From the NCBI GenBank assembly GCA_030295235.1, contig AP026128.1, positions 1,302,001 through 1,366,000 on the forward strand: a stretch of DNA of 64,000 nucleotides, given 5' to 3'. Positions 12,130 through 46,932 of the stretch are shown one piece after another. The notes beneath the pieces are model-generated. The model ran no database searches. It was not told where the DNA came from and saw only the letters and a program-made list of their open reading frames with translations. Source of the stretch: Fistulifera solaris. Its lineage: Eukaryota > Bacillariophyta > Bacillariophyceae > Naviculales > Stauroneidaceae. The stretch's first letter is position 1. The number at the start of each line of letters is the position of its first letter. A program made the translations under genes and the position numbers.

Positions 12130-12606
12130 GGGTTGCTCACAGGGAGGACAAGCAGCAAAATTAGCAAAAACATAGAACGTAAGGCTAGCTGTCATTATTT
12201 GATTCTTTGTTGGTGGTTATAATAAGCTTTGTAAACACATAAAGTTGGCACAAGCGGCCGAGCCTAAATCTATTACAGTACGCTCAGATTTTCTGGAGAA
12301 GTAAAAATACCACACCCCCAGATTTTCTGTAAACTTCAAAATACCAATCGCCCAGATTTTCTGGACACGTCAAAATACCAATCGCCCAGATTTTCTGGAG
12401 ACGTCGAAATACCAATCGCCCAGATTTTCTGGACAAGTCAAAATACCACACTACTAGATTTTCTGGACACGTGAAAACATAACTCGCCCAGATTTTTACA
12501 AATACCGCAAACTGCAATAATCAAAATCCACCCAAAAACATTGCATTCGATCTTTGAATGTCTTTTACCTGTAACTAATTGGTAATCGTTGTTATACTTC
12601 TACAGG
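12130..12606. promoter_or_regulatory. Region upstream of the Pin1-type isomerase, containing a 34-bp tandem array
   Basis: The stretch between the oxidoreductase stop and the isomerase start is mostly filled by the 34-bp repeat array at 12281-12510. About 95 bases separate the array from the ATG. A regulatory role is inferred from position only. Confidence 0.4.
12281..12510 (+). repeat. 34-bp tandem array A1 (seven units)
   Basis: The word AGATTTT begins at 12286, 12320, 12354, 12388, 12422, 12456 and 12490, exactly 34 bases apart each time. The unit contains CCCAGATTTTCTGGACACGT followed by CAAAATACCAATCG; the last unit is truncated. There are no unique spacers, so this is not CRISPR. The array reads in the same direction as the downstream isomerase gene. 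Confidence 0.9.
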
Positions 12607-13069
12607 ATGAGTGAAGTACGCGCTGGTACGTTTACCGGTTATCTTTGTGTCGAGTTATTTGTTTGCACGGCCTATGAAAGATAGTTTTCTTAATTGACAA
12701 CAATGCCATTCTTACACAATTGAATCACGTTTCTCTCTGTACAGCACATTTGCTGATCAAACACACGGGAAGTCGTAATCCTGTTTCGAGACGAACGGGT
12801 CAGACGGTCACACTCACTCCTGCAGAAGCACAAAAGAACTGGAATCGTATCAACAAGCTCTTCTGCAGAACGGATTATCGCAATTCCCCGAGTACGCCAA
12901 ACAGCGTTCCGATTGCAGTTCGTATCAGAATGGGGGTGATTTGGGGTTATTCGGACGTGGGGCTATGCAAAAACCCTTTGAGGAAGCAGCATTTGCTTTA
13001 GAGCCCGGACAAATGAGTGGCATTGTGTCGACGGATAGTGGATATCATTTAGTGTATCGTATTGAATAA
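12607..13069 (+). CDS. PIN1: Pin1-type parvulin peptidyl-prolyl isomerase (two exons, one frame break)
   Basis: Exon 1 is only 19 bases (12607-12625, MSEVRA and one base), followed by a 119-base intron with GTACGT and ACAG borders; exon 2 is 12745-13069. Joined, the protein reads AAHLLIKHTGSRNPVSRR, the typical parvulin start with the basic loop that in Pin1 binds phospho-Ser/Thr-Pro. The C-terminal half contains SDCSS, GGDLGLFGRG, MQKPFEEAAFAL, GQMSG and TDSGYHLV, all classic parvulin blocks. The frame breaks at the A4 run 12832-12835; the joined length, 344 bases, is one short of a multiple of three. There is no WW domain, as in plant Pin1. It converges on the topoisomerase gene. Confidence 0.85.
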
Positions 13070-13266
13070 TGGACTAAGCATGGATGCTCATGAATGCGTA
13101 AATCAGTTAATGAAATACTCTAAAGAGCGACTTTGCAAAATTGTTTTTAAGTTCTATTTCTACGTCTCTTTCTCTTTGATTCACAATGCATCTGTTTCTG
13201 GCGGCACAATTCCCTCTTCCTTCCAATTACCTCAATATTTAAAGAGCCGGGCAACTTACTTTGAGT

Positions 13267-16052
13267 TCATCTTCCGTCGCCACTTCGGTTGCGCGGTGTT
13301 CCTCGACCGCCTCGACCATTCATCATGTTCGCGTGAGTCCATCCTCCTCGTCCACCACCACGGCCGCGTTGCGTTCCTCGACCGCGACCTGTGGAGGCAG
13401 CACGATAATTGTTTGGAGCTCGTGCCAGCACTTGATTCGGTTGTGGTAACGATATTTCCATTTCGCGACGAAACGAGGTATCACACAGAATGCAGGTTGT
13501 CACGAAAGATCCCAAATGCGGTGGCACACTCCCACGTTTCCACGTAAACTTCATTTTCAACACCAAATGACCTGGACTCGAACAGGTCGCACAAAGGCCA
13601 TCTGCATTCTCATTTGAAGTAACATCCAGCACTGTCACTTGTTCACACTCTTTGGGCAACCAAATGGAATAGGGACACCGATCACCGCGCTGAAAATGAG
13701 TACAGGACACTACGTAACCACGCGACGTTTTGCGCAAGGTTACACTTTGGGTCGGATTGCCTTGACTGGCACAAAGGGGCAATGGAACACGGTCACGTCG
13801 GGTGTCCCAAGCGACAATGAACATTCCGTGTTTGTGCAATTCAAGCAGCGGAAATCGGGAGCATGACCCGGTGGAGGATTTGAAAAACAATGAGGACAAA
13901 CAGAGTACCCACTCCCCGTATAACCATCCCCGGTAGTAATTTGGACCACCTGATACTGACACAAGGGACAAATAAATGGTTGATTTTGTGCATCTCGTTT
14001 CGGTTGTGGAATTCCGCGCGGCAATGCCCAAGTCTGTGAGCAAGTTGTGCAATGCAGCATCTTTCGTGTCACTCGCCCTTGTATGCTGTGTTTTAATGCC
14101 ATAGGATGACGACACGCCCCACATAAAGTGAACTGCTGTTGCACAACAGTACTCGTTTCCCCGAGCGATTGATAATGCCGCGCCACGGCACGATCAAGTA
14201 AATGAGCTTCTTGAACCGCGGTTCGATAGCACTGTTGCATTTTCTCCAACAACCGAAGAACCACTTCTTCCGCAGTCTTCTGACCCGCCGCAATTAGATT
14301 GCATTCCGCTTCCGTTTCGCGTCGTAGATCCGGTTTATTCAATTGATATCCCATACTGTTGTACCCTTCCACCAAGGCAATGCCCAATTGAGTCGGCGAG
14401 AATTTCAAGTTGCCGTCTTTTATTGCGTATTCTCTATCTTGAATGGTGGCAATGTGTTGAGCAATCGTAGCATCCGTTCCAATACCGTGGCGATCCATCA
14501 AAGAGATCAGCTCTACTTCAGATAGAGGTGAGGGCGGCGTAGTACGGCCTTCTTTCATTGTCAAGGATGTGGGCCGTATCCGACTTCCGACTGGTAAGGA
14601 TGGTAGTTCTCCTTGTCCTGTAGACCAACGTTCCCATGGACGATAGGCATCAAGCCAGTTACGTTCTAAAACCATAAGACCCGTAGCTTGAAATTCCTCT
14701 TCTCCCATGCGAACAACTAATTGTGTTTCCCGCCCTACCGCATCTCGAGAACAGCAGGCCAAATAATGCTTCACGACCAGTTCATATACTCGTCGCTGCT
14801 GAGGGTTGCCAATGGAAGCGGGATCTACAGCCTTGCAGGGTGTAATGGGCGGATGTGCTTGATCGTCGTTCGGACCAGCACGCGGATTTTGGAAATGTCC
14901 TGGTTGTAGCAATCGCTGCGCCGACTCTCCCATTTCTCCTGGAATGGTTGCCAGTTGTTCCAAGAGCGGTCGATGTTGGAATTCGGGACGAAAGCGTTCT
15001 GTTTCTGTTCTCGGGTAGGAAATGTATCCTTGTTGATACAGTTCTTCCGCCGCCGTCATCAACTGCTCACTGCTAATCTGCAGGAAACGACTCGCTCGTT
15101 TTTGCAACTCTACCGTCGCCAGCGGAACCGGACGCCATTTGTGCTTTGGCCGACCATTTGCAGATACAACAATAGCTTCTTGTGCATCGAGACAGGCTTC
15201 GTATAATATGAGTGTGGTGAGTTGATCGTACAGTCGAGTACGCTTCCACTGAAAAATGATGGGTCGAGCATTCGCCTCGTCTGCCGTCAGGGTCAATTCT
15301 AAAAACCAAAAATCTTCCGGTACAAAGGTTTGTATTCTGGCCCATCGCTCTACTACGAAACCCAAAGTAGGAAATTGACAGGGCCCGTACGAAACAACCC
15401 CTTCTGTCGGCAAGACAAATTGTCGTTGCAATCGTTTGGTTTGAAAGCGCGTAAAGGCCGCTCCAACTCGTAAATCTAATTCCATTCTCGCCTGTACTGC
15501 CTTGACATGATATTCATTAAGTCTTCCCAGTGATCGCAACGCGGATTGTATTTCTTGCGGCAGAACTGTACTGAAGCGAGCTCGATAAATTGGCATTTGT
15601 GGATGTACTTGCAACAGTACGGTGCGCACTTCATCCCCAATGGCTTCCCCTTCTCGATCGCAATCGAGCCATAATATACACGCTTGTACTTCCCGCGCCA
15701 GTTGTTGTAAATTGCGGAAGATCGGTTGCATATCTTCTTTGTATTGTGTTTCTAAAGGAACTTGCGGTGTTAAAAGAACACTCGGATCGCATTTACTCCA
15801 TCCGTACGCTTCCGGGAAATCGATACTTGCTAAATGCCCGCGTACACTCGTTGTAATCATAGTATGTGATGCAATAGGACCGTCTAATCGCACACCGTTG
15901 CCTTGTTGGAATATTTGAGGAAAATCGACACGTTCGTGACGAAAGACTTGAATGTTGTGATTTCTTTGCATATCACTTTGACGTCCAAAGACTTGCGCTA
16001 AAGAGCGAGCGACGCTGGGTTTCTCGGCTACATTTAATACTTTGATAGTCAT
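13267..16052 (-). CDS. TOP3A: DNA topoisomerase III (type IA) with zinc fingers and RGG tail (one frame break)
   Basis: The N-terminus (VLNVAEKPSVAR) and DCDREGEAIGDE near residue 130 form the metal-binding TOPRIM domain. EGVVSYGPCQFPTLGF and ISYPRTETERF follow, the latter holding the catalytic tyrosine near residue 350. C4 zinc modules (CGAC...CTTC and CPLCQ...CPHC) precede a further Cys-rich block resembling a GRF finger, and the protein ends in a Gly/Arg-rich tail (GRGRGTQRGRGGGRGG). The frame breaks by one missing base around 13773-13779 (CCCC/TTT on the coding strand), and the total of 2786 bases is one short of a multiple of three. In the family this enzyme works with RecQ helicase and RMI1 to unlink crossed DNA strands. 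It is divergent from the coiled-coil gene at 16484. Confidence 0.9.
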
Positions 16053-16483
16053 TCTCGTAAATGAGAAGCAAAGCTGTAAAAGAATCGCAAGAATAAGGGG
16101 ACTTTCGAGTGCCCTTTACCTTTACAAGTACCAGGTACCAGGTACTTTCTCTTTTGATCTCGTCATCGTGCATCGTGCATCGTGCGGATCGAAAACTTGG
16201 ATCGAATGAGGCGCACCGAAAACAAATGACGGACCGGTACACGAAAGAGCTATGGTTTTTGAAGGACGTTTTTCAGATAATAGTGTGGTTTCTCATTTCC
16301 GTTGTGCTGCGCCGGACACTCGAAAAACTTTTTTGCCGCCGCGCGCCGTCGCACCTTTCGTGCTGTGTGCGGCGGTTGAGAGAGCAACATTGCAACGCAA
16401 AGTGCTCGTAAAACTATCCATCATTCATCATTCTATCGGTTTCAACTGAGTTTTCACAATCATTTATTACAACAATTAACAGC
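16053..16483. promoter_or_regulatory. Bidirectional promoter region between topoisomerase III and coiled-coil gene
   Basis: About 430 bases lie between two divergent starts. It contains GTAC-CAG-GTAC-CAG-GTAC at 16128-16145, 76 bases upstream of the topoisomerase ATG, and a CATCGTGCATCGTGCATCGTGC run near 16160. The promoter role is inferred from gene orientation. Confidence 0.4.
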
Positions 16484-18130
16484 ATGGGAACTCCCTTGAC
16501 TGGGATACTAACCAATACAGTGAGTCACGACGAAGACGATGCAGTCGAAAGGATCGCGAATCATCATCAGCAGCAAGAGCAATTGAATGCGCAAACGCCC
16601 GATGATATTGCGTCGACACCGCAACATAAACAACGAACAGCAGAAGATGATGATGCCAGTCTTCCTTCAGTTCCTTCTCTGCCTTCACCATATTCTCCGC
16701 CGTCGCATTCATTAATGAGTGCAACAGAAGAATGGATGATGCGACGTCGTTCTCGTACGAATGCAACAGATAGTTTGAATTATCACAGAAAGACTCAGAC
16801 AAAGAATCACAATCAGACTGCAAACAACAATGACAACAAACCACCCGATCTTATTCATACAACATCTTCATCATGGCACGAAGACGACGATGATGAAGAT
16901 GAAGAAGATCCGATTCTCATGCAACAAAAACAAACTTTACAAAAACAAAAAGCAGAATGTCAAAAACTATCCAAAGAAAATCATGAATTGAAACACCAAC
17001 TGCAGAAGCAGACGCATACTCTGCTACAGCGATCGCGGGATCATGAACAAAGACAAAAGGCACTGCAACAAAAATGGCAATCCGCACTCTTGCAATTGGA
17101 TAAAGCCAAAGCTATGAATCATGAATTGAAAACGAATTTTCAAAAGCAACTGCAACAGGTACAAGTACAAGCCGATGATTGGCAACAACAGTATCAACAA
17201 TTGCAAGAACAGCATCAACAGCAGCAGTCGCGAAGAGGAAAACATGTCAAAGAGCCCGTGGATGCGGCCTGTCAAACCGATATCATTCCAGCAACCACGC
17301 GATCCCCACAGAACGCGGTGGCGTGTCAAACGGAATCACCGAAATACGCTTGTAGCAGCATTGCGTGTCAGACAGATGAGATACCTGCAGTACCAGCAAT
17401 CGACGCAGGAACACAGACGGATCCCACGCAATTTGCTTCGACATTGGAAGAACGGTTGGGTCGAATTCGAGATGCGGCCGAACGAGCTGCGTTAGTTCAA
17501 GAACACCAGACGGCATTACAGCAACTGCAAACAACTCACGATGAAGAAATGGAGCGCGTGGAGAAACGGCACGAGGCCGCCTTGGCCCAAGTAGTGCAAC
17601 AGGCGCGACAGCATGTTCAAGAACAAGTGACGGAGTATCAACAAAAGCTGGAACAACAACACGCTACAAAGTTGGCGGCTTTGGAAGCCAAGCATCAAGC
17701 CGAACTATTTCGTGTACGTCTTTCTTTTGTCCCTTTTCGATATGACGTTGGCTAACCTCACACTGTGACTTTGCAGATTCGACAGGAATACGAAAAAAGT
17801 GCCAACGTCGCAGAGGAAGTCATGCGAGCAGCCGTATCCGAGGCCAATACCACAGCTCAACAATTGCAACGCGAAATGGAAGCACGCGCCGCTCTAGAGA
17901 AGCAACTAGAACAAATTCAAAGGCAACAACATGATCACTCGCACGAGCGACAATTGCTGCTTTCCATTCAAGAAGAATGCAATGCCATTTTCAATCGACA
18001 GCGTGGTGTTATTTCGTCGAAGCCAGCTGCTGTTTCGCCTCTGAAAAAGTCAGAGTCCACGACATGGGCAGAAGCGGATCGTACCTTGGGTGATTTGGAA
18101 GCATTGGTGGCGTCCTTGACTAAGAAATAG
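16484..18130 (+). CDS. Coiled-coil protein of unknown function (two exons)
   Basis: Exon 1 spans 16484-17713 and exon 2 17777-18130; the 63-base intron has GTACGT and TTGCAG borders and is phase 0, giving about 527 residues. The first 120 residues are Ser/Pro/Asn-rich and acidic (DDDDEDEED near residue 135). Most of the rest is a long Gln/Glu/Lys-rich heptad-like coiled coil. Between residues 255 and 310 there are four spaced copies of an A-C/G-QTD/E motif (AACQTD, VACQTE, IACQTD, DAGTQTD), resembling the short dynein-light-chain-type TQT motifs. Binding of a light chain or cytoskeletal partner is an inference. The C-terminal end is another coiled coil. Confidence 0.75.
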
Positions 18131-18249
18131 ACTATAGGCACACATCATTTTGTCGAAGTATGAATGGACTTAAACGTGCAACGCAATGGGAGTTTAGAGC
18201 GATGTGGAAACTGGAAATAAAGTAACTAATACATCTGGCTTATCCCCGC

Positions 18250-19317
18250 TTAGTTAGACTCGCTGGAAATCAAAACATCCAATACTTTTTCGCGACCGTT
18301 TTCTTCCTGCCACAAATCGAAGATTCGGATCGAATCCACAATCTGTTTCTGGTCGACCTTGGAAATAGTTCCAAAAGTAGCACTGAAGGGCATCGTCATG
18401 TAAGCGTAAGTACCAGCCGTAAGAACTTGTTGCGCTAGAATGAAGCGTGCGTACTGCAGTGCAATGGACTCACTAGGAGGACCGCGTACGTTGACACGAG
18501 CTTGTGGGAATCTCTTTTGTAAGTATAGTTGCAAAGCGTAGACTAAAATTGCGCAGCGACTTTTCTCATCTTGAAAGTCCTGGATGACGATACCGATCGA
18601 AGATGCCGCGTCTGAAATTAGGTCAGCCAAGGGAGCGAAGCGAGCATATCCATAGTTGAGATGAGGAGTCTTTTCCAGAATATCTCCACAGCGGAAATGA
18701 ACAGCGACATCGTCCACTTCTACTTCCGGAACCAGGGGAGACGAAGACACCACACCAGTCTGCAGCTGGCGATCAATATTGGTTGCGGACGAATGGGCAG
18801 ATACCCCTACCAGAGAAAGCGCCATGCGCCGAAGATCGTTGCGCAAATCTTCCAAGGTAGAACCTTCCAAAAACCAAACAGGCTTACAAGCGACCTCACG
18901 ATTTATATCCCATGCCGTTTGTGCTTCAAACGTCCCCATCGCCCAAGGGAGAATCAAATTGTGCTTCGTGTCCGCAGCATCAATACATTCCATTTGAAGT
19001 TCTACATATCCGATGAGGCTCGCGGCTCTGCGTAGATTGTACACGAACAGCAGCCATTTGCCTGTACTGAAGTTGGAATGATCGTGTAGATCTTGACAAT
19101 GGAATGAGTAGCGTACTCGTAGCGGCACGTGGGACACATCATTCCTTTCACGCAAGTCGCGACAAAGGATGAGCTGACTGTTGTGAAAGAACTCTTGAAT
19201 ATGCTCTTCCGCGTGATCTGGGTTATAGGTTAAATGTAAAGCTTCTTTAGGACTCAACGACGCAGAAGCAAACGTCTTAATAATCTTGGTAGAAACAAGG
19301 AAGAAAACATGCTTCAT
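18250..19317 (-). CDS. Secreted glycosyltransferase-like protein
   Basis: The ATG at 19317 gives 355 residues starting with a hydrophobic signal or anchor (MKHVFFLVSTKIIKTFASA). The open frame extends upstream only to a TTG. VDDVAVHFRCGDIL near residue 215 resembles the HxRxGD segment of fucosyltransferase-like GT-B enzymes, and a C-terminal SIALQYARFILAQQVLTAG followed by SATFG resembles the nucleotide-sugar-binding end in which a conserved Ser/Gly block occurs. It shares this architecture with the gene at 5688 but not close similarity. The donor and acceptor are unknown. It converges with the coiled-coil gene. Confidence 0.55.
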   Translation of the reverse strand: MKHVFFLVSTKIIKTFASASLSPKEALHLTYNPDHAEEHIQEFFHNSQLILCRDLRERNDVSHVPLRVRYSFHCQDLHDHSNFSTGKWLLFVYNLRRAASLIGYVELQMECIDAADTKHNLILPWAMGTFEAQTAWDINREVACKPVWFLEGSTLEDLRNDLRRMALSLVGVSAHSSATNIDRQLQTGVVSSSPLVPEVEVDDVAVHFRCGDILEKTPHLNYGYARFAPLADLISDAASSIGIVIQDFQDEKSRCAILVYALQLYLQKRFPQARVNVRGPPSESIALQYARFILAQQVLTAGTYAYMTMPFSATFGTISKVDQKQIVDSIRIFDLWQEENGREKVLDVLISSESN

Positions 19318-21242
19318 TGCAAGTTCACCTTGCGTAGAAACTAACACGATCACCAGGGGAATCACCAGTATCAAGATTACCTGGAAGCAAAGAGCTTCTT
19401 GCGTAGTAAGTTATCATCATCCTGCGTTGCTTATGGTAAAACTAGAAAACAATATTATGGCTGGTACGGTAGAAAGCAACGTAAATGATCAATGGCTTGA
19501 TTGACGATACGGAAGATATTGAGTACCAGTAATCGCAGTAATCAGGATTATTCCACGGGCGCACGGGCGACAGAAGACAGAAGACTGAACAGTGGCATCA
19601 GCACTTGTCGGAGTTCGATACAAAGTACAATTCAAAGACGACAAGAGGGACGAGGGACGAGAGACACACGAGACACGAGAGACACGACGACTACTGACTA
19701 CTGACTACTGACTACGTAGTAGGTAGTATTTGGTAACGGTCAACGGTCAAAGGTCACCTGTTACCGGTCTGGTCATACCGTTAAATAAAAAATTAATTAT
19801 GGTTGATGGACGAGAAAAACCGTCGCCCGTCGCCTCTGAGCTGTGAGCTGTGAGAATACTACGTACCTAGTCCCAGTAAGTAGCATGTAATATGTAAGAT
19901 GTAAGCCTTTGCTGTTTACTGCTAATTTTATGCGTTACGCCTCAGTAATCAGTGATTAGTGACCTTTTAATTAATAACGTAATTATTGGACACAGTCACA
20001 GGTTCAATAAAGAATTCCCTATTGTCAATACCGGAGAATACTTGTCCTTGCTGCACGCCGCCGCGGGCTGTTAATTGATACAAAAGAAAGATGAGAGGAT
20101 AGAGGATAGAGGATGTACTTGTAATGCAATGTGTGCTTCGCAGAACAGTATTTCACAAGAGGTACGTACGACTGTGATGGGCAAGATTCGCCGTCATGGG
20201 TCGCCATAAACGTAAAACCTGTAAGAACGCAGCACGCAGCACGCAGCATCGGCTGGGTGAGACAGTCTAATTATTAACGAACACAACGAATATAATTGAA
20301 CGTACCTTCCACCATGGTGCAGGCGCAACAATTTCCACCATTCGTGGTGGAAATGACGATGATGGTCGTTTGGGAAAACGATCGGAGTTCTTTTCGCCAG
20401 TCTTCTTCATGTTCCTAGCTTTGTTGTATTAGTTTGACGCACTTACCAGGTACCGCCGGAAATTGTTTTTGCCGCTTTTTAGGGCTCATAGCCTGTATTT
20501 TTACACCAACTACGAGGGAAAGCTTCGACTCTGTTTCTAAAGACAGATTAAGCAACGCGTGTAGTGTAGTGGGTAGTCGAAAGATGTTCGACTGTCAAGT
20601 GTCAAGACGATGAAGAAATTTTCTTTGTTTTGAAAATGGGGCAAACAGACCCGAAAATGGAGAGAGAACCCCCTCCTCCCGAGTACTGTACCAGTACCGG
20701 TACCGTACCGGTACTTAACTTGTGCCCCCTCAGCCGATAAATTTCCTTACCAAGCCTACGTGAAACTCACGTAGACTTTCAAAGTGTTGCATCTTTCATC
20801 CTGTTTTGCTTTTTGAGCGGATGATTCATGTCGTATTTTGCGTACGGTAACGACAGACTATAATGTTGGAGTGAGAAATGATGCTATTTGTGGCAAGCGG
20901 ACCCGAAAATGGAGAGGTCGAGATAACACAAAGTACGGGTTCCTTCAGCGTCAGCCCATAATTTTCCGAACCATACCAGGTAGCCCCACCGGTACCATAG
21001 AATTTCGGCTCCACCACGTGCGTACCACGTACGCGTATCACATCACATACCTCTTTTTCCTTGCATTTCCTCGACAAAAAGACAAAAGAGAATTGATCGA
21101 CTAGTAATTCTACATTCGACCTGGTAGTATTTACGTTTTGGTGTTGTACGTAATTTATTTCTTGATTTGGCTGCGTTTCGTCTCGATTGCCGAAGTTGCG
21201 ATTCGGCTGGTCTTTCTTTGAGTTCTCTCTTTGATCACCAGA
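19318..21242. other. Long intergenic region with short-period runs and dispersed repeats
   Basis: No gene is supported in 1.9 kb. Seen: short-period runs at about 19645-19720 (GACGAG, GACACGA, TGACTAC units), a cluster of six GTAC tetramers at about 20683-20715, TACCAGGTA near 20449 and 20968, copy 4 of the CTACGTGA-palindrome repeat, and a local duplication of GACCCGAAAATGGAGAG at about 20648 and 20900. Confidence 0.55.
20721..20810 (-). repeat. Dispersed CTACGTGA-palindrome repeat, copy 4 (inverted)
   Basis: Read on the minus strand it follows the same order as copy 1: GAAAGATGCAACACTTTGAA, GTCTACGTGA, TTTCACGTAG, GGAAATTTATCGGC, GAGGGGGCAC. A more diverged partial copy may follow near 20955. 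Confidence 0.7.
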
Positions 21243-25069: not shown

Positions 25070-25699
25070 GATTTTAGAAAGGATATGTGTCTTGTCATCG
25101 TGGCAGGATGTGTTTCATAGGAAAATAGGGTGTGTGTGGGCTTGCTATAGAGAGTCATCGTTTTTGTAATCAGTGAAAGAGTGGTTGATTCATTTTAGCA
25201 ACAGTTATAAGGATCCAGACGACGTTTGATGTAGGTCGACTGCAATTCTTTGATTGACGACTCTAGAAAGCTCATTCCAACTTACCAACTAGCGAAATTT
25301 GCTTCATGATTAAATTCCTATTTATATCAAGTACCAGTAGTAATAAAATTCAAATTCTTTTGACAATAGTAAAGTTTGAAATGCACCACCTCTCTCCTTT
25401 GAACTTGTCAGCATCAAAAATCCGTTCTTTGTTTTCATTTGCCCAGCTTTTCTGTAAACTTAACTACCCACGTGAAATATCACATGCCCACATTTTCGGG
25501 ACACGTGAAAAACCTCCTGCCAACAATGTCGGGACACGTGAAAAAAATCAAAAAAGCACATTCCCACACTTTCTGGCAACGTGAAAATTACACACACCCA
25601 GCAATAAATCACCGCACATAAACATTTTTTCAGCAGGTTCTTCGAGTGCCTCGTCAAAGGAGAAGAGGACAAGTATAGTTTTAGTACAATCCTGCAAAC
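25070..25699. promoter_or_regulatory. Region upstream of aconitase X, containing an array of CCCACATTTTC repeats
   Basis: No gene is seen. The repeat array at 25440-25610 ends about 90 bases before the aconitase X ATG. A regulatory role is inferred from position only. Confidence 0.4.
25440..25610 (+). repeat. Tandem array A2 (about five diverged units)
   Basis: Units start near 25445, 25490, 25523, 25566 and 25600. They contain CCCACATTTTCGGGACACGT, CCAACAATGTCGGGACACGT and CCCACACTTTCTGGCAACGT, each followed by GAAAA. Unit spacing is 33-34 in two steps and 43-45 in the others. The core and the direction match array A1, and the array points toward the aconitase X gene. Confidence 0.75.
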
Positions 25700-27846
25700 A
25701 TGAAGTCACCTTCTTCATTACTCTCGCTGCGGAGTCAAGTTTTGGTGCCCTGTAATACCTTAAATGCTGCCTCTTCGTCCTCATCAACAGCAGCAGCACC
25801 GCTTCTCGTTAGTGACGTTGGGTTGTCCTTTTGGGGCGGAATTGACCCGATGACATCGCAAATTGTCGATACACAACATCCCCTGCACGGACAGTACGTA
25901 CACGACAAAATATTGTGCATTCCGTCGGGACGAGGTTCTTGCACGGCATCACAAGTCTTGTTGCAACTCATTTTGAATCACAAAGCACCCAAAGCTATTG
26001 TTTTGCGTCAGAATGATCCTCTGGTGGCAGTCGGGGCGCTCGTCGCACAACATGTGTTTCAAACGGATGACGATTATTTGCAAATTCCTACAATTGTCAA
26101 CATTGGTGTCGACGGATTTGCGCAGTTGTTGAAGTGTGAAGGCAACGTATTCGGACAAATTGATTCGCGTGGAAGAACGACAGCGCTGCTGGTGGCGTCG
26201 GATTCTGATTTGCTCGCAAGCGATAGTATGAACGATCGTACTTGGACGATAAATGAGCAATCGGTGACTGATGACCAAGCCGAACCAAATTGGACAGATT
26301 ATGAACAAGAAAGATGGAATCAAGCAAAAACGGGAGCGGAACGGCTGGCGCTGCAAATCATGTATCAGTATGCTCGGATTGCTATGATGGACGATTCATC
26401 ATCCATTTTAGATTCGGAGGGACCATCGTATGTCTCTGTATCGCGTGCTCACATTGTACGTAAATTGAACCTTATCACTTGCTGCTATGAGTTGTCGTTT
26501 TATGGAATACCGACGGCTAATTTACTTACTCATCTCTGAACATTCGTGTTCCTTGCCATCTAGGACGCATGTACCTACATCGGATCGGGCAGTCTCGCTT
26601 TGGTAAAACGGTTCGTCGAAAAAGGTGGTCAAGTTCGAATACCTACAACGTTGAATGCGGTCTCGACTGATCGAAGACAGTGGCAACAATTGGGCGTCCC
26701 TTCTCAATATGCACACAATGCCAATGCCTTGGGCGATGCCTACCTGCAATTGAATTGTCAACCAACATTCACGTGTGCACCTTATCTTTTGCTGTCGCCG
26801 TCCTCGGAACCGGCCACATATGAAGCGGAAGACTGGGTTTGGGGAGAATCCAATGCCGTCGTATATGCCAACTCGGTTCTTGGAGCGCGAACGAACAAGA
26901 CAGCTGATTATCTCGATTTGTGCGGGGCACTAACTGGGATTGTTCCGAGAACTGGAATGCATTGTCCCGAACAGCGTGTACCGATGGTGATACTCGATGC
27001 CACAGCATTGATTGAGCAATCGTACATGGATCGCTGGGAGTCATCTTTATTCTTTGCCCTGTTGGGACATGCATGCGGGACGTTGAGCGATGGAGCTGTG
27101 CCTTTGTTGGTAGGCTTGGAGCAGTAGCTGATCAAATCACTCGCGATGATTTGAAAACCTTTTGCGCTGCCTTCGGAACAACCGGCTCATCTCCATTGGT
27201 TCATATTGCTGGCGTCACAGCGGAAGCAAAAGATCTCGAGCGAGTTGTACAGCCGTGGAAAGAATCAATTCTGGAGAAGGGAGGAAATCCAATTGTCGAA
27301 GTGACTGCTCACTTTATGGAGAAAACATACATTTCACTGAATTCAAGTGATACGAATGGGCAGAAAGTGGACCTGATTGCATTGGGGAACCCCCATTTGT
27401 CGGTATCGGAATGCCAAACTTTAGTTGATTTGATTACGAAGACGGATCAAAATGAAGAAAGAAGTTCTCAAGTCCGCATTATGGCATGTATCTCACGTGC
27501 CGTTCAAGCTCAGGCTGCAGAAAAAGGTTTGATCGAACCCTTGCAGAACTTCGGAATCGAATTTATTAATGATACTTGCTGGTGTATGCTTTTGGATCCT
27601 CCTGTGATACCAGCTGCCCCAGAAGCTACTATATTGACGAACAGCGGAAAATATGCACATTACGGACCCGGTCTCACGCAGCGCAAGTACAAAATTGGAA
27701 GTACAGCAGATTGCATTAGCGCGGCCCAGACCGGCGTATTTCGTCCCTCTCTTCGTGAATTTCATACAAATGCGCAACAGCAACTTCGTCGACCGCAAAG
27801 AGTCCTTTTGCTTGCTTTCCGCTTTGTGTCTCGTTCATTGCGTTGA
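25700..27846 (+). CDS. Aconitase X, fused small and large domains (two exons, one frame break)
   Basis: Exon 1 is 25700-26455 and exon 2 26564-27846; the 108-base intron has GTACGT and ATCTAG borders. The first 240 residues hold the small DUF126 swivel domain (SFWGGIDPMTSQIVD, then IPSGRGSCTASQVL, then APKAIVLRQNDPLVAVGAL). Exon 2 starts the large DUF521 domain with DACTYIGSGSLALV and continues through LGDAYLQLNCQPTFTCAPYLL, ESNAVVYANSVLGARTN and ILTNSGKYAHYGPG near the end. The frame breaks once near 27118-27122, and the joined length is one base short of a multiple of three. Known aconitase X enzymes dehydrate hydroxyproline isomers or phosphomevalonate; which applies here cannot be told. 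Bacteria often encode the domains separately. Confidence 0.85.
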
Positions 27847-28448: not shown

Positions 28449-28590
28449 AAATTCTACCGTTCGCGCCATTAGTCACTTAAAGACAGAGGCTTTACTTTGG
28501 GAAGATCAGGATATGCTTTAAATTCTACCGTTCGCGCCATTAGTCACTTAAAGACAGAGGCTTTACTTTGGGAAGATCAGGATATGCTTT
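28449..28590. repeat. 71-bp direct tandem duplication over the sulfurtransferase 3' end
   Basis: The block starting AAATTCTACCGTTCGCGCC at 28449-28519 is repeated without visible change at 28520-28590. The second copy contains the stop and last codons of the sulfurtransferase gene; the first lies in its 3' flank. The apparent identity suggests a recent event or an assembly slip. Confidence 0.9.
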
Positions 28591-29496: not shown

Positions 29497-29541
29497 TATA
29501 TCATAGCAACCAAACAACAGCATTCACAACACAAACTATTA

Positions 29542-36547: not shown

Positions 36548-36673
36548 ACTTAAAGTCTCACTCAATAAACGTTCGAGCTTATTCGAATACGTATAAAGTC
36601 TAATTCATTATTGCAAGATTACGAATGCTACTCCCATAGCCCTACACATCCTTTCGCCACTTTCCTCGCTCAT

Positions 36674-38892: not shown

Positions 38893-39263
38893 GTAGGAGT
38901 ATAAAGGATGGAAGCAATGGTTTGTTATCGATTATCGTTCATTGAATAGAGGTCGGGTTTTGTTTTGAAACGGACACAACGGACTAGAAAGTGTCACAGC
39001 GCCAAACCAATGCTAAGAAAGTTTTGTCCTATACATGACGATGCACAAAACAGTAGATTTTCCTAAAAATCCTAAATATTTATTCCTAATTTTCCTGAAA
39101 TTACTTTTTGAGAGCATAAACAAACAACAAAAAACGCGACGAAAAAGCGTCGCACGAAGAGACAACTCTTTTGTTATCATCATTCATCCTCTATTCCAAT
39201 CATTTAATCTACTTTCGTCTGATCGTATTATTTCAAAACCTCAATTCAACTGTTCTCCACACA

Positions 39264-39656: not shown

Positions 39657-39723
39657 AGAAAAATGAGTGATAAATGCGTCACATCAATAATTTTAGTTAG
39701 TGCCTATTAACTGCCGTTGTTCA

Positions 39724-40918
39724 CTAAAAGAACCTATGCATGGGCACATAAATCGCCAAACTCAATAGCATCGCTCCTCCCAAACTGATCACAGCATACA
39801 GCCAATTCGAGGGAGGATCATGACAATGAATTTCTTTGATCCACGTTGACACTGTCGATAAGCTCCCGAGAAAGCCAGTCGTCCATGGAGACATATCTAT
39901 ACTCTGTATCTCCAGTCCTGTTATTACCGCTAAGAGCATGCATGCTGTCCAGTTGGCTATCAATGTACCACGCATCGGTGTCTCGGCTGTATTGTAGTGA
40001 ATTGACAAGAAGTATCTTGTTAGAGCACCGCCTGGAGCTGTCCATGCCAATGGAGCCAAAGTAGTAATAAATGCCGCACTATTCGTTGTGGTGAAGGTCA
40101 ACGAGAACAGCAGGAGTCCGCACGCCAATAGAGTAGGCGGGATGAGCCATATTTCACGAGGAAACGTGGTTTGCTTCCGGCTCGCATTCGTGTCACTGCT
40201 GTTGCGATGCGTACTACTGTGATCGTCGTTTTGTTCGTTACTGCCATCGCTCAATCTTACAAGGGTCGAAAGAGCTGTCCCCAAGACGAAACTGCCATAA
40301 GCTCCAAACGTTCCGAGAATATAGCCAACTATTGCCATGGCAATGTCTCCTTCTTCCAACATTGTCACCATTTGCATATTCCACGACGAGACTATTGCCA
40401 GAGAAATGTAAGATAAGTGTGATACGATGGATAAAGAGAAGCACCCTTGAATACGTACAAGTCGTGAGAGATCCACAAAATCCGACTTGCCAGGCTTGGC
40501 AATAAGGAACTGTATCATGATTCTGATGCAATAAAACACCCATTAAAAAGCTTCCGAATAGATTTGCCGGCAAATCCACAAACAACGCGGACTGCGAAGA
40601 CGTGACACAAGCGGTAGATTGTTGATGCGATACCGCAGGGGAATTGTCGCATTGCAGGTAGTAGGCTAAAGAAGCACGAGTGGACGCACCCAAAAAGGCA
40701 CAAATGGAAATAGCGTACAATAACCAGAACGTCGTGTAATAGGACGAAGGAGAAGAAGTCGTTTCTTCTGGAACATTCTCAATTGTGTCGTCTTCAGAAA
40801 CTGACGGCTGCATCATATTCTCATTAACATTCTCGTGCAGCTCATCCTGATGATAAAGATGAGGATTTGTTTCTTGACGTTCGTGAACGGATGACGGGCT
40901 TTGATCTATGTTCAACAT
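39724..40918 (-). CDS. FEX: Two-domain fluoride exporter (FEX/CrcB family, two exons)
   Basis: Exon 1 is 40459-40918 and exon 2 39724-40391; the 67-base intron has GTACGTA and ATAG borders. The joined length is an exact multiple of three (376 codons). The first Fluc domain shows FLGASTRASLAYYL, LPANLFGSFLMGVLL and GFCGSLTTFSSWNMQM; the second shows APLAWTAPGGALTRYFLS, GTLIANWTACMLL and GFLGSLSTVSTWIKE. The paired domains joined by a linker are the eukaryotic FEX design, giving an export channel for fluoride in the plasma membrane. The open frame extends upstream of 40918 only to a TTG. Its 5' side holds a very large palindromic repeat array. Confidence 0.85.
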
Positions 40919-42367
40919 CCAATGCGCTTCACCTGCCCCGTAAATCACATGAGCTACATGTAAAGCTACGAGAACAATGGTGTTGTGATCGAAAAGAACC
41001 GATTGCAAAAATTTTTTCTTCTGGAATCATCGCTGTTTTGTGTCTTACAGAGATTCTGTGCAAGTTTTGGAAAATAATTCTGGAATCTGTTTTGGGTCAT
41101 ACAGAGATTCTGAGGAAGTTCCAGAAATTCTGGAATCGCTGTTGTGTATCATACAGATATTCTGTGAACCTCCAGAGATACTGAAATCCCTGTTTTGTGT
41201 TTTGTGTCATGCAGAGATTCTTGTGGACGTTCCAGAAATTCTGGAATCGCTGTTTTGTGTCATACCATTTCGCGGTCGGGTCATACAGAGATTCTGTGGA
41301 CGTTCCAGAAGTTCTGGAATAATCGCTGTTTTGTGTCATGCAGTGATTCTGTGGATGATCCAAAAATTCTGGAATCGGTGTTTTGGGTAAGACAGAGATT
41401 CTTTGAACGTTCCTGAAATTCTGGAATCGCTGTTTTGTGTCATACAGCATTTTTGCGGTCGTTCCAGAAATTCTGGAATCGCTGGGTTGCGTCATGCAAA
41501 GATTCTGTGAACTTCCAGAAATTCTGGAATAATCGCTGTTTTGTGTCATGCAGTGATTTCTGTGGATGATCCAAAAATTCTGGAATCGGTGATTTGGGTA
41601 AAACAGAGATTCTTTGAACGTTCATGAAATTCTGGAATCGCTGTTTTGTGTCATACAGCATTTTGCGGTCGTTCCAGAAATTCTGGAATCGCTGGGTTGC
41701 GTCATGCAAAGATTCTGTGAACTTGCAGAAATTCTGGAATCGGTGGTTTGGGTCATTCGAGATTATACAGAATATCTGTTAGATCAAAATCATCGCCTCC
41801 GGAAATTGAGGAATGTAGGAAGAATTTCTGTAAGCAAATAATTACCTGTTCCAGAATTTCTGGAACATACACAGATTTTCTGTAAGATCAAACTCATTCT
41901 TCCAGAATTTCTGGAACTAAGACAGAATCCCTGTAAGATTATTATCACTGTCTCCAGAACTCCTGGAGCGTAAAAATGATTATTTCTGAAGGAACATAGA
42001 GGCCGCTAATCTACATCCTGTAGTGAATGTGGGGCAAAAAGCGTGATTGCATATTATAACCTTACCCTTACTCCGTACAGCGTGCGTTGTGTCTACTACC
42101 AGTATTGTGCTCGTGACTCGCGAGCTCATGATTGAATTTACGCCGACTGACGCACCGCGCGCTATGCGACGCTTCTTCTTTGTTTCTGTTGATGGTTTTG
42201 GGAGGAGGCGAGAATGATTCATTCGTCATCAAACAATAGACTAGCCCAAGTCTACATTTCAGTACTTACCTTTCAACTAGCTCTATCGCTGTTCCGAGAT
42301 AGCGGCGAGACAAAAAGTAAAGGAAGAAGAAGCGACGGAAGAATTCACTCGACGGCCTCTCATTCAC
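40919..42367. promoter_or_regulatory. Divergent upstream region of the fluoride exporter and AsnRS genes, filled by a tandem array
   Basis: A 1-kb repeat array (41010-41975) starts about 100 bases from the exporter ATG and ends about 390 bases from the AsnRS ATG. A TACTCCGTA word lies near 42069. Open frames seen within the array are repeat translations and not genes. Confidence 0.5.
41010..41975 (-). repeat. Palindromic tandem array A3 (about 17 units, mostly 51-52 bp)
   Basis: The word CTGGAAT or a variant recurs at 41021, 41080, 41130, 41181, 41241, 41314, 41369, 41421, 41473, 41524, 41580, 41632, 41683, 41734, and after a degenerate gap at 41860, 41911 and 41963. Most units hold two palindromes: TTCCAGAAATTCTGGAA and CAGAGATTCTGTG. 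On the minus strand the unit reads CCAGAATTTCTGGAACGTC, the same core and direction, relative to the adjacent gene, as arrays A1, A2 and A4. The 17-bp perfect palindrome could form a cruciform. Confidence 0.9.
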
Positions 42368-43978
42368 ATGTTGCTGCTGCCATCGCGTGTCGTTTTTCCA
42401 ATGGGAATTATCTTCTTGGGGACGATGCATCGCTTGATACGCACCGCTGTTTCTTTCTCGGTTCCTCCTGTTTCGAGTAGTCGAAGACTGGTGACTACGA
42501 CATCTACAACACGCCTCTTTTCGACCACTCCGGGAACCTCCACTTTAGCTTCATTTGCGCCCCGTATCAAAACAGTAGATGCTAAAGAACCCACTGATTC
42601 AGACATCACTATCAAAGGATGGGTGAGAACTATTCGCAAACAAAAGACGCTCGCCTTTGCTCAAGTTAATGATGGAAGTAATTTGGGAGGTATACAATGT
42701 GTCTTGAATTTCGACCAATTGGATGAAGCCAGTCAAGCTGCAATCGACCAAGTAACGACTGGATGTGCTGTTCAAATCACCGGTCCACTTGTTCCGTCGC
42801 AAGGTGGTCAGCAAGCTGTCGAAGTCGCCGCCAAAACACTCCGTGTCGTCGGATTGTGTCCGGCCGATACTTATCCACTGGCTAAGAAACGTCATTCCTT
42901 GGAATACTTGCGCAGTATTGCCCATTTGCGGCCCCGTACCAATACTATTGCGGCGGTCGCCCGTGTTCGCTCGCAACTGGCAGCCGCCATTCATTCCTTC
43001 TTTCAATCGCAAAACTTTGTCTATGTGCAGACACCCTTGATTACGGCCAGTGATTGTGAAGGAGCCGGTGAACTCTTTCGTGTGACAACCTTGGATTTGG
43101 AACAAGAATTGCCGCGCTTGAACAATACCGACCGTACCGTAGATTACAGTCAGGATTTTTTCGGCAAACCCGCGTTCTTAACGGTGAGCGGGCAGTTAGG
43201 TGGTGAAACTCACGCTTGTGCGTTAGGTGATATCTATACCTTCGGACCAACGTTCCGGGCTGAGAACAGTCAAACTACCCGCCATTTGGCAGAATTTCAC
43301 ATGGTAGAACCGGAAATGGCCTTTGCGGATTTGCAAACGGCCATGGAGAATGCCGAACAACTGTTGAAGTACACAGTGTCGCATGTGTTGAAGAATTGCC
43401 AGGAAGATTTGACGTTCTTTTCGTCGTTCTATGACAAGGAATTGTTGGATCGATTGCAAAAGTTGGTCGATCAGCCCTTTGCACGTGTTTCGTACCGTGA
43501 AGCGATTGCGTATTTGCAAGAAGAAATTGCCAAGGATCCCTCCAAGTGGCAATACCCGCATGTTGAATTCGGTACGGATCTTGCCACCGAACACGAACGT
43601 TGGTTAGCGGAAACCAAGTTTGAGTCTTGCGTCTTTGTGTACAACTATCCCGCCGCCATAAAAGCGTTTTACATGCGCGCCAACGATGAAGACAATGGTG
43701 AAACAGTGAATGCTATGGACTTGTTGGTTCCCGGCGTCGGCGAGCTGGTGGGTGGCAGTCAACGAGAAGAGCGCTTGGATGTCCTCGAACAGAAGTTGCG
43801 CGACAATAATTTGAACTTGGACGATTATTGGTGGTACTTGGATTTGCGTCGGTACGGAAGTGTCCCTCATGCGGGCTACGGCTTGGGCTTTGAACGGTTG
43901 GTACAGTATGTGACGGGTATTGAGAATATCCGCGAAGCCATAGCTTTTCCGCGGTATCCCGGCAATGCGGAGTTCTAA
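42368..43978 (+). CDS. Asparaginyl-tRNA synthetase, organellar/bacterial type
   Basis: The frame from 42368 is intact for 536 residues. The N-terminal 60 residues are Ser/Thr/Arg-rich and suit plastid or mitochondrial targeting; Met codons at 42401 and 42425 are alternative starts. An OB-fold anticodon domain ([19 protein letters not shown]) comes first. Class II motif 1 lies near [18 protein letters not shown], motif 2 is [21 protein letters not shown], and motif 3 is [15 protein letters not shown] followed by FPRYPG. The class IIb features and GELFRVT/SGQLGGE segments fit AsnRS rather than AspRS. It charges tRNA-Asn in organelles. Confidence 0.9.
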
Positions 43979-44428
43979 GAAGGGAACTATGAGTTGAACA
44001 AATCGACTATGAGGAGAACTAGATGTTTTGTTTGTTCTGGCTATTTTTATGCAGGATCTTACGACGATTCACTTTGTCACACCTGGTAGCGTTTAGAATC
44101 GTAGATTGTTTATCCAAAATCTTGCTCCCATATGTTACGAGTATTTTCAATTTTTATATGATAGATCAATCTGCTTTGATCTTGTTTTAAATTACTGGTT
44201 CAAGAGAGCCTAAAAGGCATGAGGGCACAGTATTTCCCAAGACATTCTTCGTTCGAGATCCTCCGGGACTGAAGACGAGGTGAGTCACAGCATGTTGCGC
44301 CTACACGTTATGGCTATAGTGCCACTTAAACAGTAACCTTATTGTATCAATCGGGCTCACATGCGACAAAAAATTAGAAGCATTTTGTTGACGATGAGGA
44401 TTCTCATTTACAAAATCAAATTACAACA
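43979..44428. other. Intergenic region
   Basis: Nothing specific is recognised in these 450 bases between two same-strand genes; AT-rich sequence precedes the reductase ATG. Confidence 0.5.
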
Positions 44429-45265
44429 ATGACTGAGTCTTCTGTTCTTCCTCAAATAGCACCTCCTCTCTCTCTACTAGAACCGTGGACGTTACAGGGA
44501 CGCCATTACGTTGTAACTGGAGGAGCTGCGGGAATCGGTTGGGCTGTTGTGCAAGCTTTACTAGCGCACGGAGCATCGACTGTCTTATTTTGTTCGCGAA
44601 GTCCCGTCGATCTCTCTGAATTGCAAAAGACCTACCCTGATGCAACAATCTATCATGTTGTTGCTGATGTTTCGACGGAAGAAGGACGATTGTTACTTAC
44701 AGAAGCAATTACAAATAAGTTGACTTTTTTACACGGTTTAATCTCGAATGTCGGAACCAATGTTCGGAAATCATTTGAAGCGCAAACAGCGGAAGAATAT
44801 CACACAATGCTTCGCACTAACGTAGATTCGGCTTATTTTCTCTCAAAATCCTTGTCGCCTTTATTCATTTCAGGATCGACAATCGTACACGTTTCCTCAG
44901 CCGCCGGTGTACAAAGTTCCGGAACAGGAATTGCCTACGGACTCAGTAAAGCGGCCTTACACGGATTGACGCGCGGCTTGGCGTGTGAATGGGCACATCG
45001 AGGCATTCGTGTCAACGCGGTCGCTCCTTGGATGACCATGACACCTTTATTAGAAAAAGCCATTGAAGAGAATCCGAATCAACTCGACAAGGTCAAGGAA
45101 TGGACTCCTATGCACCGTCTAGCGGAAGCCAAGGAAGTGGCAGCGCCAGTTGTATTCTTGTGTTTACCGGCGAGTTCTTACATTACAGGACAAATCCTGG
45201 GAGTTGATGGAGGATTGACGGCACAAGGTTTTGCGGGGCCATGTGTTGATAGTACGGGAATCTAA
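44429..45265 (+). CDS. Short-chain dehydrogenase/reductase (tropinone-reductase-like)
   Basis: The ATG at 44429 gives 278 residues. The classical SDR features are complete: cofactor motif [13 protein letters not shown] (TGxxxGxG) near residue 30, NVG in LISNVGTN near 108, catalytic Ser in [15 protein letters not shown] near 150, and [11 protein letters not shown] (YxxxK) near 165. The C-terminal [19 protein letters not shown] and [15 protein letters not shown] are typical of tropinone reductase-like members. The Arg after the first strand (CSRSP) suggests NADPH. The substrate is not known. Confidence 0.9.
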
Positions 45266-45322
45266 AAGGTAAATAATGAGACATCATATGACTCCCTATC
45301 TTTTCAATAGCTTATTGTATTA

Positions 45323-46630
45323 CTAATTTGAGGGTCTCACGTTGACAAATGAATCCTCTACAATTGGATCGGGAACGCAAATGTCACCAACTACTTCCGA
45401 CCCCTCACACCAAGATTGCGATACAGCTTGATCCAACAAACGATGAATAGCCGCATGCAATGCTGTACGTTTCTTTTCATCCAAAGGCCACAACAAAGCT
45501 AAAGCATTCCAAGCCGGTTGTGCATGCAACAATAGATAAGTGTTTTCGGGATTTTGTTGATAGGAATAAAATCCCAAAGTGACCGATGTCGCCAAACGAC
45601 AAGCAATCAATAAAGGTATGGCTCGTCGTTCGGCTTCTGACAATTGCGTGACGCTATGATATCCACGCAAGACAGCGGCCGCCGCCGAAAAACCTCGTTG
45701 CGATTTTCCGTACGAGGATAACATGGCATACGCCATGCATATGGCGACATCTGCGGCGCGCCAAGTTTCGACGGCATCACCATAATCAATTACACCCGTG
45801 ACGCGACATTGCTCATCACAGAGAATATTCGCATCATTCAAGTCATTGTGACACACTCCAACGGGCAACGTTTGTTGGAAATCCGGTAATTGAGCTGAAA
45901 ATACATCCAGAATCGACAAAATTCGAGCTTGTTTGTCGTCGGCTGTGGGCAGATACTGTATCACAAAGGGATGAATATCCAGAACATGCCGAAGATTCCA
46001 GATGTGATAGCGTTGCGCTGCCTTTTTCCATGGAGCATCCTTCTCGGCATGTTGTTGAGGAAACGCGACATCGAATGCTCGATGCAAATGTCCTAAATAA
46101 GAACCCGTGAGAAGGAGTGTTTCGACGGGCAAGAAGAGAATTGTCGACATGGGTCGTCCCGGAACCCACGATAAGAGACGACAACACAGCATCTGGGGCG
46201 AATGTTGCTCCGAAACGACGGACAAGGAAGCGGAGATAACTGTTGGTGTAGAATTGTTGGGATTTTCAAGTAAGTTTTTGGCCCTTTCGACCGGTAGATT
46301 GGAGGTAATATGAGGCTCCGGACGCAAAGCTTCCATAAGAGCATTCTGAAAGGCAATACAAGACGTTTCGGCATCTTGGAGGAATTGTTTTGATTCAACA
46401 CCATTGTGTATCTTGAATAGATAGAGCGTATCATCCAGTTGCACTTTATAATTCGCATCATCGTACGAGTCAAGCTGTTGTAGGACTCGGTATGTTTGGG
46501 CCGTGAAGTGCTGTCGAAGAAGCTCTTCTACTGCTTCCAGAGAAACTGACGGTACAAGAAGCTTTCGCCATTCTTCTTCAGTTCGTTCTGCGTCGCTTTT
46601 CCTGTTGTTATCACCGGAATTGGGGGACAT
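45323..46630 (-). CDS. Hydroxylysine-kinase-like phosphotransferase (APH family)
   Basis: The ATG at 46630 gives 435 residues with an intact frame. The N-terminal lobe holds LDSYDDANYKVQ, closely resembling the LDSYDDxNF segment of human hydroxylysine kinase, and LFKIHNG with the ATP-contacting Lys. The catalytic loop is CHNDLNDANIL and the metal-binding motif VIDYGDAVETW. This order is typical of APH-fold kinases; HYKK uses GTP to phosphorylate 5-hydroxylysine. The N-terminal resemblance makes HYKK-type the best guess, but choline or homoserine-type kinases are possible. An array of 34-bp repeats lies 210 bases upstream. Confidence 0.75.
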   Translation of the reverse strand: MSPNSGDNNRKSDAERTEEEWRKLLVPSVSLEAVEELLRQHFTAQTYRVLQQLDSYDDANYKVQLDDTLYLFKIHNGVESKQFLQDAETSCIAFQNALMEALRPEPHITSNLPVERAKNLLENPNNSTPTVISASLSVVSEQHSPQMLCCRLLSWVPGRPMSTILFLPVETLLLTGSYLGHLHRAFDVAFPQQHAEKDAPWKKAAQRYHIWNLRHVLDIHPFVIQYLPTADDKQARILSILDVFSAQLPDFQQTLPVGVCHNDLNDANILCDEQCRVTGVIDYGDAVETWRAADVAICMAYAMLSSYGKSQRGFSAAAAVLRGYHSVTQLSEAERRAIPLLIACRLATSVTLGFYSYQQNPENTYLLLHAQPAWNALALLWPLDEKKRTALHAAIHRLLDQAVSQSWCEGSEVVGDICVPDPIVEDSFVNVRPSN

Positions 46631-46837
46631 TTTCTATCTTGTAGCTTCAATTCAGAAAAATATGCAGATCGTTACGTGATAAGTAACAAAAATCTTGAAT
46701 TCGTTGAGCGAGCGTTCTATTTGGATGTGATATTTGTAAGCGATTGAATCATCATTGATTGAAGATTGATGATGCAACAACAGGCTTTGTAGATAACAAA
46801 AGTGCTGCAAAAATGAAAATGCGACGATTTTTTGACG

Positions 46838-46932
46838 TCTCCAGAAAATGTGGGAGTGTGATGTTTCCTCGTCCCCAGAAAATGTGGGCGCGTCATATTA
46901 TCACGCCTCCAGAAAATGTGGAAGCGTGGTAA
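46838..46932 (-). repeat. 34-bp tandem array A4 (three units)
   Basis: CCAGAAAATG begins at 46841, 46875 and 46909, exactly 34 bases apart. On the minus strand the units read CCCACATTTTCTGGAGACGT, CCCACATTTTCTGGGGACGA and TCCACATTTTCTGGAGGCGT. Both the period and the core match array A1, 34 kb away, and the direction is again toward the adjacent gene's start. Confidence 0.9.

What the first reader, a model, noticed from the sequence alone, without database searches (positions are those of the whole stretch)
12281..46932. A tandem-repeat family placed 5' of four unrelated genes, always in the same orientation
Arrays at 12281-12510, 25440-25610, 41010-41975 and 46838-46932 share the core CCAGAnTTTCTGGAnACGTC (the first two bases of some units read CCCA). 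Seen directly: each array lies 5' of one gene (Pin1-type isomerase +, aconitase X +, fluoride exporter -, hydroxylysine-kinase-like -), with the nearest unit about 90-210 bases from the ATG, and in all four the core reads in the direction of that gene. Each array sits in a gap whose other side is a gene 3' end, except the exporter array, which is also in a divergent gap but lies closest to the exporter. Four of four in the same relative orientation has a one-in-eight chance by luck, so it is suggestive, not proof; the 5' position adds to it. A promoter-linked repeat family that spreads or expands in place is the inference. No such system is known to me in diatoms.
Basis: partly seen in the sequence, partly recalled or inferred. 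Interest (0 to 1): 0.78.

Follow-up and report, generated by a model that had tools for sequence, protein, structure and literature searches.

The report
Palindrome-cored repeat arrays near gene starts
Thousands of short repeat units built on one near-palindromic DNA word lie in tandem arrays between the genes of a likely diatom genome, mostly beside gene starts in the loci sampled and in only some of its paired gene copies, where they likely act as clusters of protein-binding sites that change quickly.

Summary
The four arrays are real. Their core belongs to a genome-wide family: 3020 unit matches at up to 3 mismatches against 16 for the reversed control. A sister 52-bp family has 1146 exact 15-mers against 0.

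The 5' placement holds modestly: 58 of 74 neighbouring gene ends are 5' ends (65% expected), and 0 of 29 fully typed gaps are convergent (14% expected). At the loosest gene-call setting it is borderline (58 of 76, p = 0.051).

Every gene region looked up has a diverged second copy. Of nine 34-bp arrays, four have an array at the homoeologous position by my criterion, five counting a worn one. The core is better conserved than the spacer. Neighbouring genes show no common function.

Best reading: fast-turnover clusters of orientation-free binding sites, likely HSF- or bZIP-type. Binding and effects on expression are untested.

The parts
12281..12510 (+). 34-bp array (6-7 units CGCCCAGATTTTCTGGACACGTCAAAATACCAAT) upstream of a parvulin-type isomerase gene
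   Evidence: absent from the homoeolog on C14
12607..13069 (+). parvulin/Pin1-type isomerase gene (ATG 12607 by eye; Rotamase domain in 12779-13066)
25440..25610 (+). worn 33-34-bp array (2-3 recognisable units) upstream of aconitase X
   Evidence: four worn cores also at the homoeolog
25700..27846 (+). aconitase X gene (ATG by eye)
   Evidence: Pfam PF01989 and PF04412
41003..41775 (-). 52-bp (210-bp higher-order) array, cores reading toward the CrcB-type exporter gene
41790..41985 (+). end piece of the same array with cores reading the other way, toward the Asn-tRNA synthetase gene
39724..41026 (-). CrcB-type fluoride exporter gene (two overlapping frames with CRCB domains)
42281..43978 (+). 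asparaginyl-tRNA synthetase gene on the other side of the 52-bp array
46829..46932 (-). 34-bp array, 3 units, upstream of the kinase-like gene
   Evidence: absent from the homoeolog
45323..46630 (-). APH/choline-kinase-like (hydroxylysine-kinase-like) gene, ATG at 46630 by eye

Best explanation
These arrays are dispersed intergenic minisatellites, mostly beside gene starts in the loci sampled, that likely work as clusters of orientation-independent transcription-factor binding sites. Each well-kept unit holds the near-palindrome CCAGAnTTTCTGG followed by an ACGT word; this is seen directly. Predicted: a dimeric factor, or an HSF-like and bZIP-like pair, binds each unit; copy number sets how much factor gathers at the promoter; slippage and unequal exchange make arrays grow, shrink, flip or vanish, so the two homoeologous copies of a gene can differ in this input. 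Shown: genome-wide abundance, a modest 5'-side excess, stronger conservation of the core than the spacer, presence or absence and one flip between homoeologs. Inferred: binding, effect on transcription, and the mutational mechanism.
For: Abundance: 1554+1466 matches against 5+11 for the reversed control; 536+610 exact CCAGAAATTCTGGAA against 0. Placement: 58 of 74 neighbouring gene ends are 5' ends against 65% for random window points, convergent gaps 0 of 29 against 14%. Two families with different unit length and spacer share the core plus ACGT words. Homoeologs: arrays at 4 of 6 homoeologous upstream regions outside the window, probability 0.0025 if 12% of gaps held an array and 0.017 if 20% did; the 12% is my rough figure. 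In the window, the aconitase X homoeolog keeps four worn cores (by eye and by a 13-base core scan), though it fails my 24-base array criterion. Candidate binders: 151 exon-level matches to the HSF DNA-binding domain (both homoeologs and some broken frames included). Oomycete HSFs bind TTC/GAA pairs with 0, 1 or 2 spacer bases (PMC11267843, passages). TGACGT/C is a target of diatom PtbZIP11 (PMC11142338, passages).
Against: The 5' excess is modest, borderline at the loosest gene-call setting (58 of 76, p = 0.051; convergent 1 of 31, p = 0.075), and its null comes from one 64-kb window. Within tandem gaps the array is nearer the gene start in 9 of 13 against 49% expected, not significant. Neighbouring genes show no common function, so no regulon is seen. 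By the strict criterion 5 of 9 homoeologous positions have no array, so it is not needed there; 4 of 9 has probability 0.016 at 12% and 0.086 at 20%. Where arrays are shared, at least one flank also aligns (74-82%), so persistence can be plain descent. The core is not a canonical heat shock element: GAA and TTC are 1 base apart, not 2. No binding or expression data exist here.
Confidence: 0.42

Rival explanations
1. Neutral minisatellites: two old repeat families that expand and contract in intergenic DNA; the 5' excess only reflects that intergenic space at gene starts is longer and more tolerant.
For: Random non-coding points in the window are already 65-67% 5'-facing. The 5' excess is borderline at one of three settings. 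No common gene function. Gain or loss and a flip between homoeologs. No significant orientation constraint.
Against: The core is better conserved than the spacer after reciprocal selection of units; 5' excess at p about 0.01-0.03 and 0 of 29 convergent gaps at the two stricter settings; two families with unlike spacers share one core.
Confidence: 0.38
2. Mobile or template-driven elements: the arrays are spread by a transposon-like or recombination-driven process that prefers open promoter chromatin, and the core is the recognition site of that machinery.
For: Near-consensus units at many unrelated loci; a length difference close to the array length at L006/L087, if a 27-bp flank match there is homologous.
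Against: With arrays masked, an all-against-all comparison of loci finds no element shared beside the arrays in general: only a ~220-bp repeat in six loci and the window at 35.4 kb, and a few pairwise matches. Copy number runs from 2 to 29.
Confidence: 0.13
3. Promoter-linked repeat with gene-bound orientation.
For: The three clean window cases; tandem gaps lean this way at every setting (9:4, 8:5, 7:4); counting only the gene downstream of the array, 33 of 40 are in the same direction.
Against: The upstream neighbour is nearly as often a 5' end pointing away (25 of 34), so that count mostly reflects divergent gaps. None of the tandem counts is significant. Flip between L017 and L088. Mixed orientation in the 41-kb array.
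Confidence: 0.07

Closest known systems
Variable tandem repeats in promoters (yeast: Vinces et al. 2009, as reviewed in PMC3899988, passages read)
   Same: tandem units in promoters that vary quickly; some human examples are arrays of transcription-factor sites
   Different: here two related families with one shared near-palindromic core recur at an estimated hundreds of unrelated loci; an effect on expression is not shown
Heat shock elements (nTTCnnGAAn arrays)
   Same: TTCnnGAA dimers occur inside the 52-bp family (TTCCAGAA, TTCTGGAA); HSF-domain matches are numerous in this genome
   Different: the central GAA and TTC are separated by 1 base, units are 33-52 bp apart, and an ACGT word is attached
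Diatom CO2/cAMP-responsive bZIP sites (TGACGT/C, PtbZIP11; PMC11142338, passages read)
   Same: part of the 34-bp units carry ACGTCA, the reverse complement of TGACGT
   Different: the sites are in long arrays with a second core and next to genes with no evident CO2 link
Local duplication of binding sites (Drosophila; PMC3188502, abstract and section list seen)
   Same: neighbouring binding sites formed by local sequence duplication
   Different: there, pairs of neighbouring sites within regulatory modules; here long regular arrays of one family genome-wide

Membership tests
Promoter tandem repeats (minisatellites) | tandem units over 10 nt | tested here: met
   periods 33-34 and 52 bp
Promoter tandem repeats (minisatellites) | located upstream of genes more than expected | tested here: met
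   58 of 74 gene ends against 65% (p 0.009), 51 of 66 against 66% (p 0.03); borderline at the loosest setting, 58 of 76 against 67% (p 0.051)
Promoter tandem repeats (minisatellites) | copy-number or presence variation between close relatives | tested here: met
   no array at 4 of 9 homoeologous positions, 5 of 9 by the strict criterion
Promoter tandem repeats (minisatellites) | repeat number changes expression | not testable with these tools
   no expression data held
Heat shock elements | contiguous inverted nGAAn units with 2-base gaps | tested here: not met
   core reads GAA-n-TTC with 1 base between; only outer TTCnnGAA pairs of the 52-bp family fit
Heat shock elements | bound by an HSF | not testable with these tools
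   HSF domain matches are numerous, binding unknown
bZIP CO2-responsive elements | TGACGT/C word | tested here: inconclusive
   the C of ACGTCA is kept in 58% of core-selected units when the search asked for it and 43% when it did not, so only part of the units carry it
Transposable element / MITE | shared element sequence beyond the array | tested here: not met
   masked all-against-all comparison of 55 unique loci plus the window shows no flank shared in general; a ~220-bp repeat occurs in six of the loci
   5 of 13 tandem gaps opposite, 8 of 16 in divergent gaps, flip at L017/L088; a weak bias is not excluded

The most novel reading that the evidence does not exclude
A diatom has turned one composite binding site into a self-expanding promoter currency: a small set of palindrome-cored minisatellites that arises, flips and disappears at hundreds of unrelated promoters, recruiting members of a hugely expanded HSF family (with bZIP partners), and setting which homoeologous copy of a gene is used after hybridisation.
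Probability: 0.2. Interest if true: 0.8.

Novelty: new variant of a known kind. Interest (0 to 1): 0.55.

Why it matters
Promoter tandem repeats are known to tune expression gene by gene. Here one family recurs at an estimated hundreds of loci (inferred from 3020 unit matches) in a genome where all seven gene regions I looked up have a diverged second copy, with arrays present in one copy and absent, worn or flipped in the other. That is a natural experiment: homoeologous pairs with and without arrays can be compared in one nucleus. In F. solaris, to which this genome may belong, subgenome-biased expression is common and promoter motifs have been proposed as a cause (PMC5935921, passages read); such arrays would be a concrete, testable candidate.

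Tried and rejected
Orientation bias: looked strong at first (20 of 22 downstream genes in the same direction), but that counted only the downstream neighbour and gaps are mostly divergent; it was not significant in tandem gaps or when both neighbours were counted.

Absence from convergent gaps as proof of promoter targeting: weakened, since convergent gaps are only about 13-14% of random points in the window, and one convergent case in 31 appears at the loosest setting.

Transposon reading: no generally shared flanks. Regulon reading: 50 of the 72 distinct flanking frames were scanned; 27 have a Pfam match at E up to 1e-5 (one, TPR_12, below its curated cut-off). No family is the top match twice, but three are 2-oxoglutarate/Fe(II)-oxygenase-like (2OG-FeII_Oxy, PhyH, Gig2-like; kinship recalled) and three are DNA-repair families (Rad10/ERCC1, Ku, EME1/MUS81); these small groups were not tested for excess. 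Viral link: the exact pattern has 0 matches in viral contigs (near relatives of this genome may be left out there).

Literature: searches for diatom with promoter tandem repeats or minisatellites, TGACGT, heat shock elements, palindromic intergenic repeats, CCAGAA, and Fistulifera promoter repeats. In the listings and abstract starts I saw nothing on this family; one search listed no paper. Absence from that library is not absence from print.

Selection caveats: array loci came from matches at up to 1 mismatch, so young arrays are over-represented. Nine of 56 loci had no 34-bp array by my criterion (most hold 52-bp-type cores, some single or widely spaced units) and were dropped from the 34-bp counts. 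The six homoeolog tests were picked for a clear coding segment beside the array, not at random. Gene ends come from a home-made coding-potential scan trained on window frames and then on all loci, not from an annotation. In one search six loci were counted twice; one search repeats that test without the duplicates.

Full report
What was checked. The window is C13:1302001-1366000 of a 51.7-Mb, 61-contig genome. For the Asn-tRNA synthetase, the best matches that carry an organism name are diatoms (for example Seminavis robusta, 75% identity). All seven gene regions I looked up have a diverged second copy on a partner contig: aconitase X 88%, and six others 82-95%. Paired contigs and base composition fit the allodiploid Fistulifera solaris (PMC5935921, passages; GC here), but I did not prove the species.

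The repeats. The 34-bp family has the unit CCCAGATTTTCTGGAnACGTCAAAATACCAnnC, mostly spaced 31-34 bp, in arrays of 2 to 29 units. The sister family has 52-bp units and ~206-217-bp higher-order repeats and uses the palindrome CCAGAAATTCTGG, often flanked by ACGT words. Genome-wide there are 3020 matches to the 34-bp core at up to 3 mismatches against 16 for the reversed pattern, and 1146 exact copies of CCAGAAATTCTGGAA against 0. Four of 47 34-bp loci also hold three or more 11-mer palindromes CAGAA(A/T)TTCTG.

Is the core special? Because units were found by their core, core conservation is biased upward. I therefore also found units by their spacer. Spacer-selected units (149 in 41 loci) keep 0.90 bit per core site; core-selected units (453 in 58 loci) keep only 0.41 bit per spacer site. 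The bootstrap 95% range of the difference, resampling loci, is 0.29-0.72. So the core appears to be held more tightly than the rest of the unit.

Where do arrays sit? Of 56 loci outside the window, 47 hold a 34-bp array by my criterion. At the middle gene-call setting, 74 neighbouring gene ends within 1.4 kb could be typed: 58 are 5' ends and 16 are 3' ends, against 65% for random non-coding window points (p = 0.009). Stricter: 51 of 66 against 66% (p = 0.03). Loosest: 58 of 76 against 67% (p = 0.051). Convergent gaps: 0 of 29 and 0 of 25 against 14% (p = 0.013, 0.023), and 1 of 31 against 13% at the loosest setting (p = 0.075). The preference for gene starts is therefore likely real but modest. 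Neighbours are not fully independent, and the null rests on one window.

Is orientation fixed? No. Tandem gaps, the only fully informative ones, are 8 same and 5 opposite (p = 0.29; stricter 7 and 4; loosest 9 and 4, p = 0.13). In divergent gaps the array is nearer the gene it points at in 8 of 16 (stricter 4 of 14). L017 (C33) and its homoeolog L088 (C32) carry arrays at the same position upstream of the same gene, reading in opposite directions. The 41-kb array in the window is itself of mixed direction. A near-palindromic core fits a lack of orientation constraint.

Homoeologs. Of the window's three 34-bp arrays, the aconitase X copy on C14 keeps four cores within about 120 bases at up to 2 mismatches but fails my 24-base array criterion, while the isomerase and kinase copies have none. 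The exporter gap on C14 is split by an extra gene, with palindromic repeats on both sides of it. Outside the window, arrays occur at the homoeologous position for L004, L017, L059 and L071 and not for L006 and L057. Total for the 34-bp type: 4 of 9 by the strict criterion, 5 of 9 with aconitase X. At L006/L087 the distance between aligned flanks differs by about 169 bp, close to the array length of 160 bp, if a 27-bp match there is homologous; the global alignment shows no clean break. At L057/L089 the site without the array carries other sequence.

What it is not. With arrays masked, loci share no flanking element in general; six of them and the window at 35.4 kb share a ~220-bp repeat, and a few pairs match, so there is no sign of a transposon body tied to the arrays. 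Fifty flanking reading frames scanned against Pfam give 27 matches of many kinds, so there is no obvious regulon; small groups (three oxygenase-like, three DNA-repair) were not tested.

Mechanism. I judge it most likely (0.42) that units are binding sites for a dimeric factor. HSF-like proteins are the lead candidate, because HSF DNA-binding-domain matches are numerous (151 at exon level; that diatoms have expanded HSF families is recalled) and stramenopile HSFs accept varied TTC/GAA spacings (PMC11267843, passages). The ACGT word is bZIP-like; TGACGT/C is a known diatom bZIP target (PMC11142338, passages). Neutral minisatellites remain a serious rival (0.38).

Novelty. Promoter tandem repeats are a known kind (PMC3899988, passages). 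New here, as far as my searches show, are the shared near-palindromic core across two families, the genome-wide scale, and the presence, absence or flip between homoeologs.

Noticed in passing
genome-wide; window 24480 (5-base spacer) and 35429, 35661 (8-base spacer); L034:4017, L038:1824, L089:813: A third dispersed palindrome, GACTG-N5-CAGTC: 1743 copies against 27 for the reversed control, in places spaced about 220 bp in tandem (for example C1:905236-906131). It sits in the gap of three of the four homoeologous copies that lack the 34-bp array (L034, L038, L089, not L087), but also in several loci that have one (for example L006, L013, L025).
   Followed up: partly
window 47174-47591: Long nested inverted repeat (134-nt arms at 90%, plus 35 and 20 nt), foldback or MITE-like, between the kinase-gene array and the next gene.
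   Followed up: no
window 12741-13066 and L034:4276-4611: The parvulin-type isomerase frame breaks between its first part and its Rotamase domain at about 12830-12845, and the homoeolog shows the same break. Recoding, a tiny intron or a shared assembly artefact are all open.
   Followed up: partly
L036:3971 to L037 about 880: An extra minus-strand gene, Na/phosphate-cotransporter-like by eye (not scanned), lies in the C14 gap that corresponds to the window's 41-kb array gap.
   Followed up: no
L082 (C17:1121001-1123400): A 34-bp array lies about 0.9 kb upstream of an HSF DNA-binding-domain match at C17:1123166, a possible self-regulated candidate binder.
   Followed up: no
L044 and L045 (C3:672k and C3:815k): Similar regions (81% over 354 bp) on the same contig, each with a 34-bp array on the same side and in the same direction relative to the shared sequence.
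   Followed up: no
window 28449-28590: A perfect 71-bp tandem duplication.
   Followed up: no
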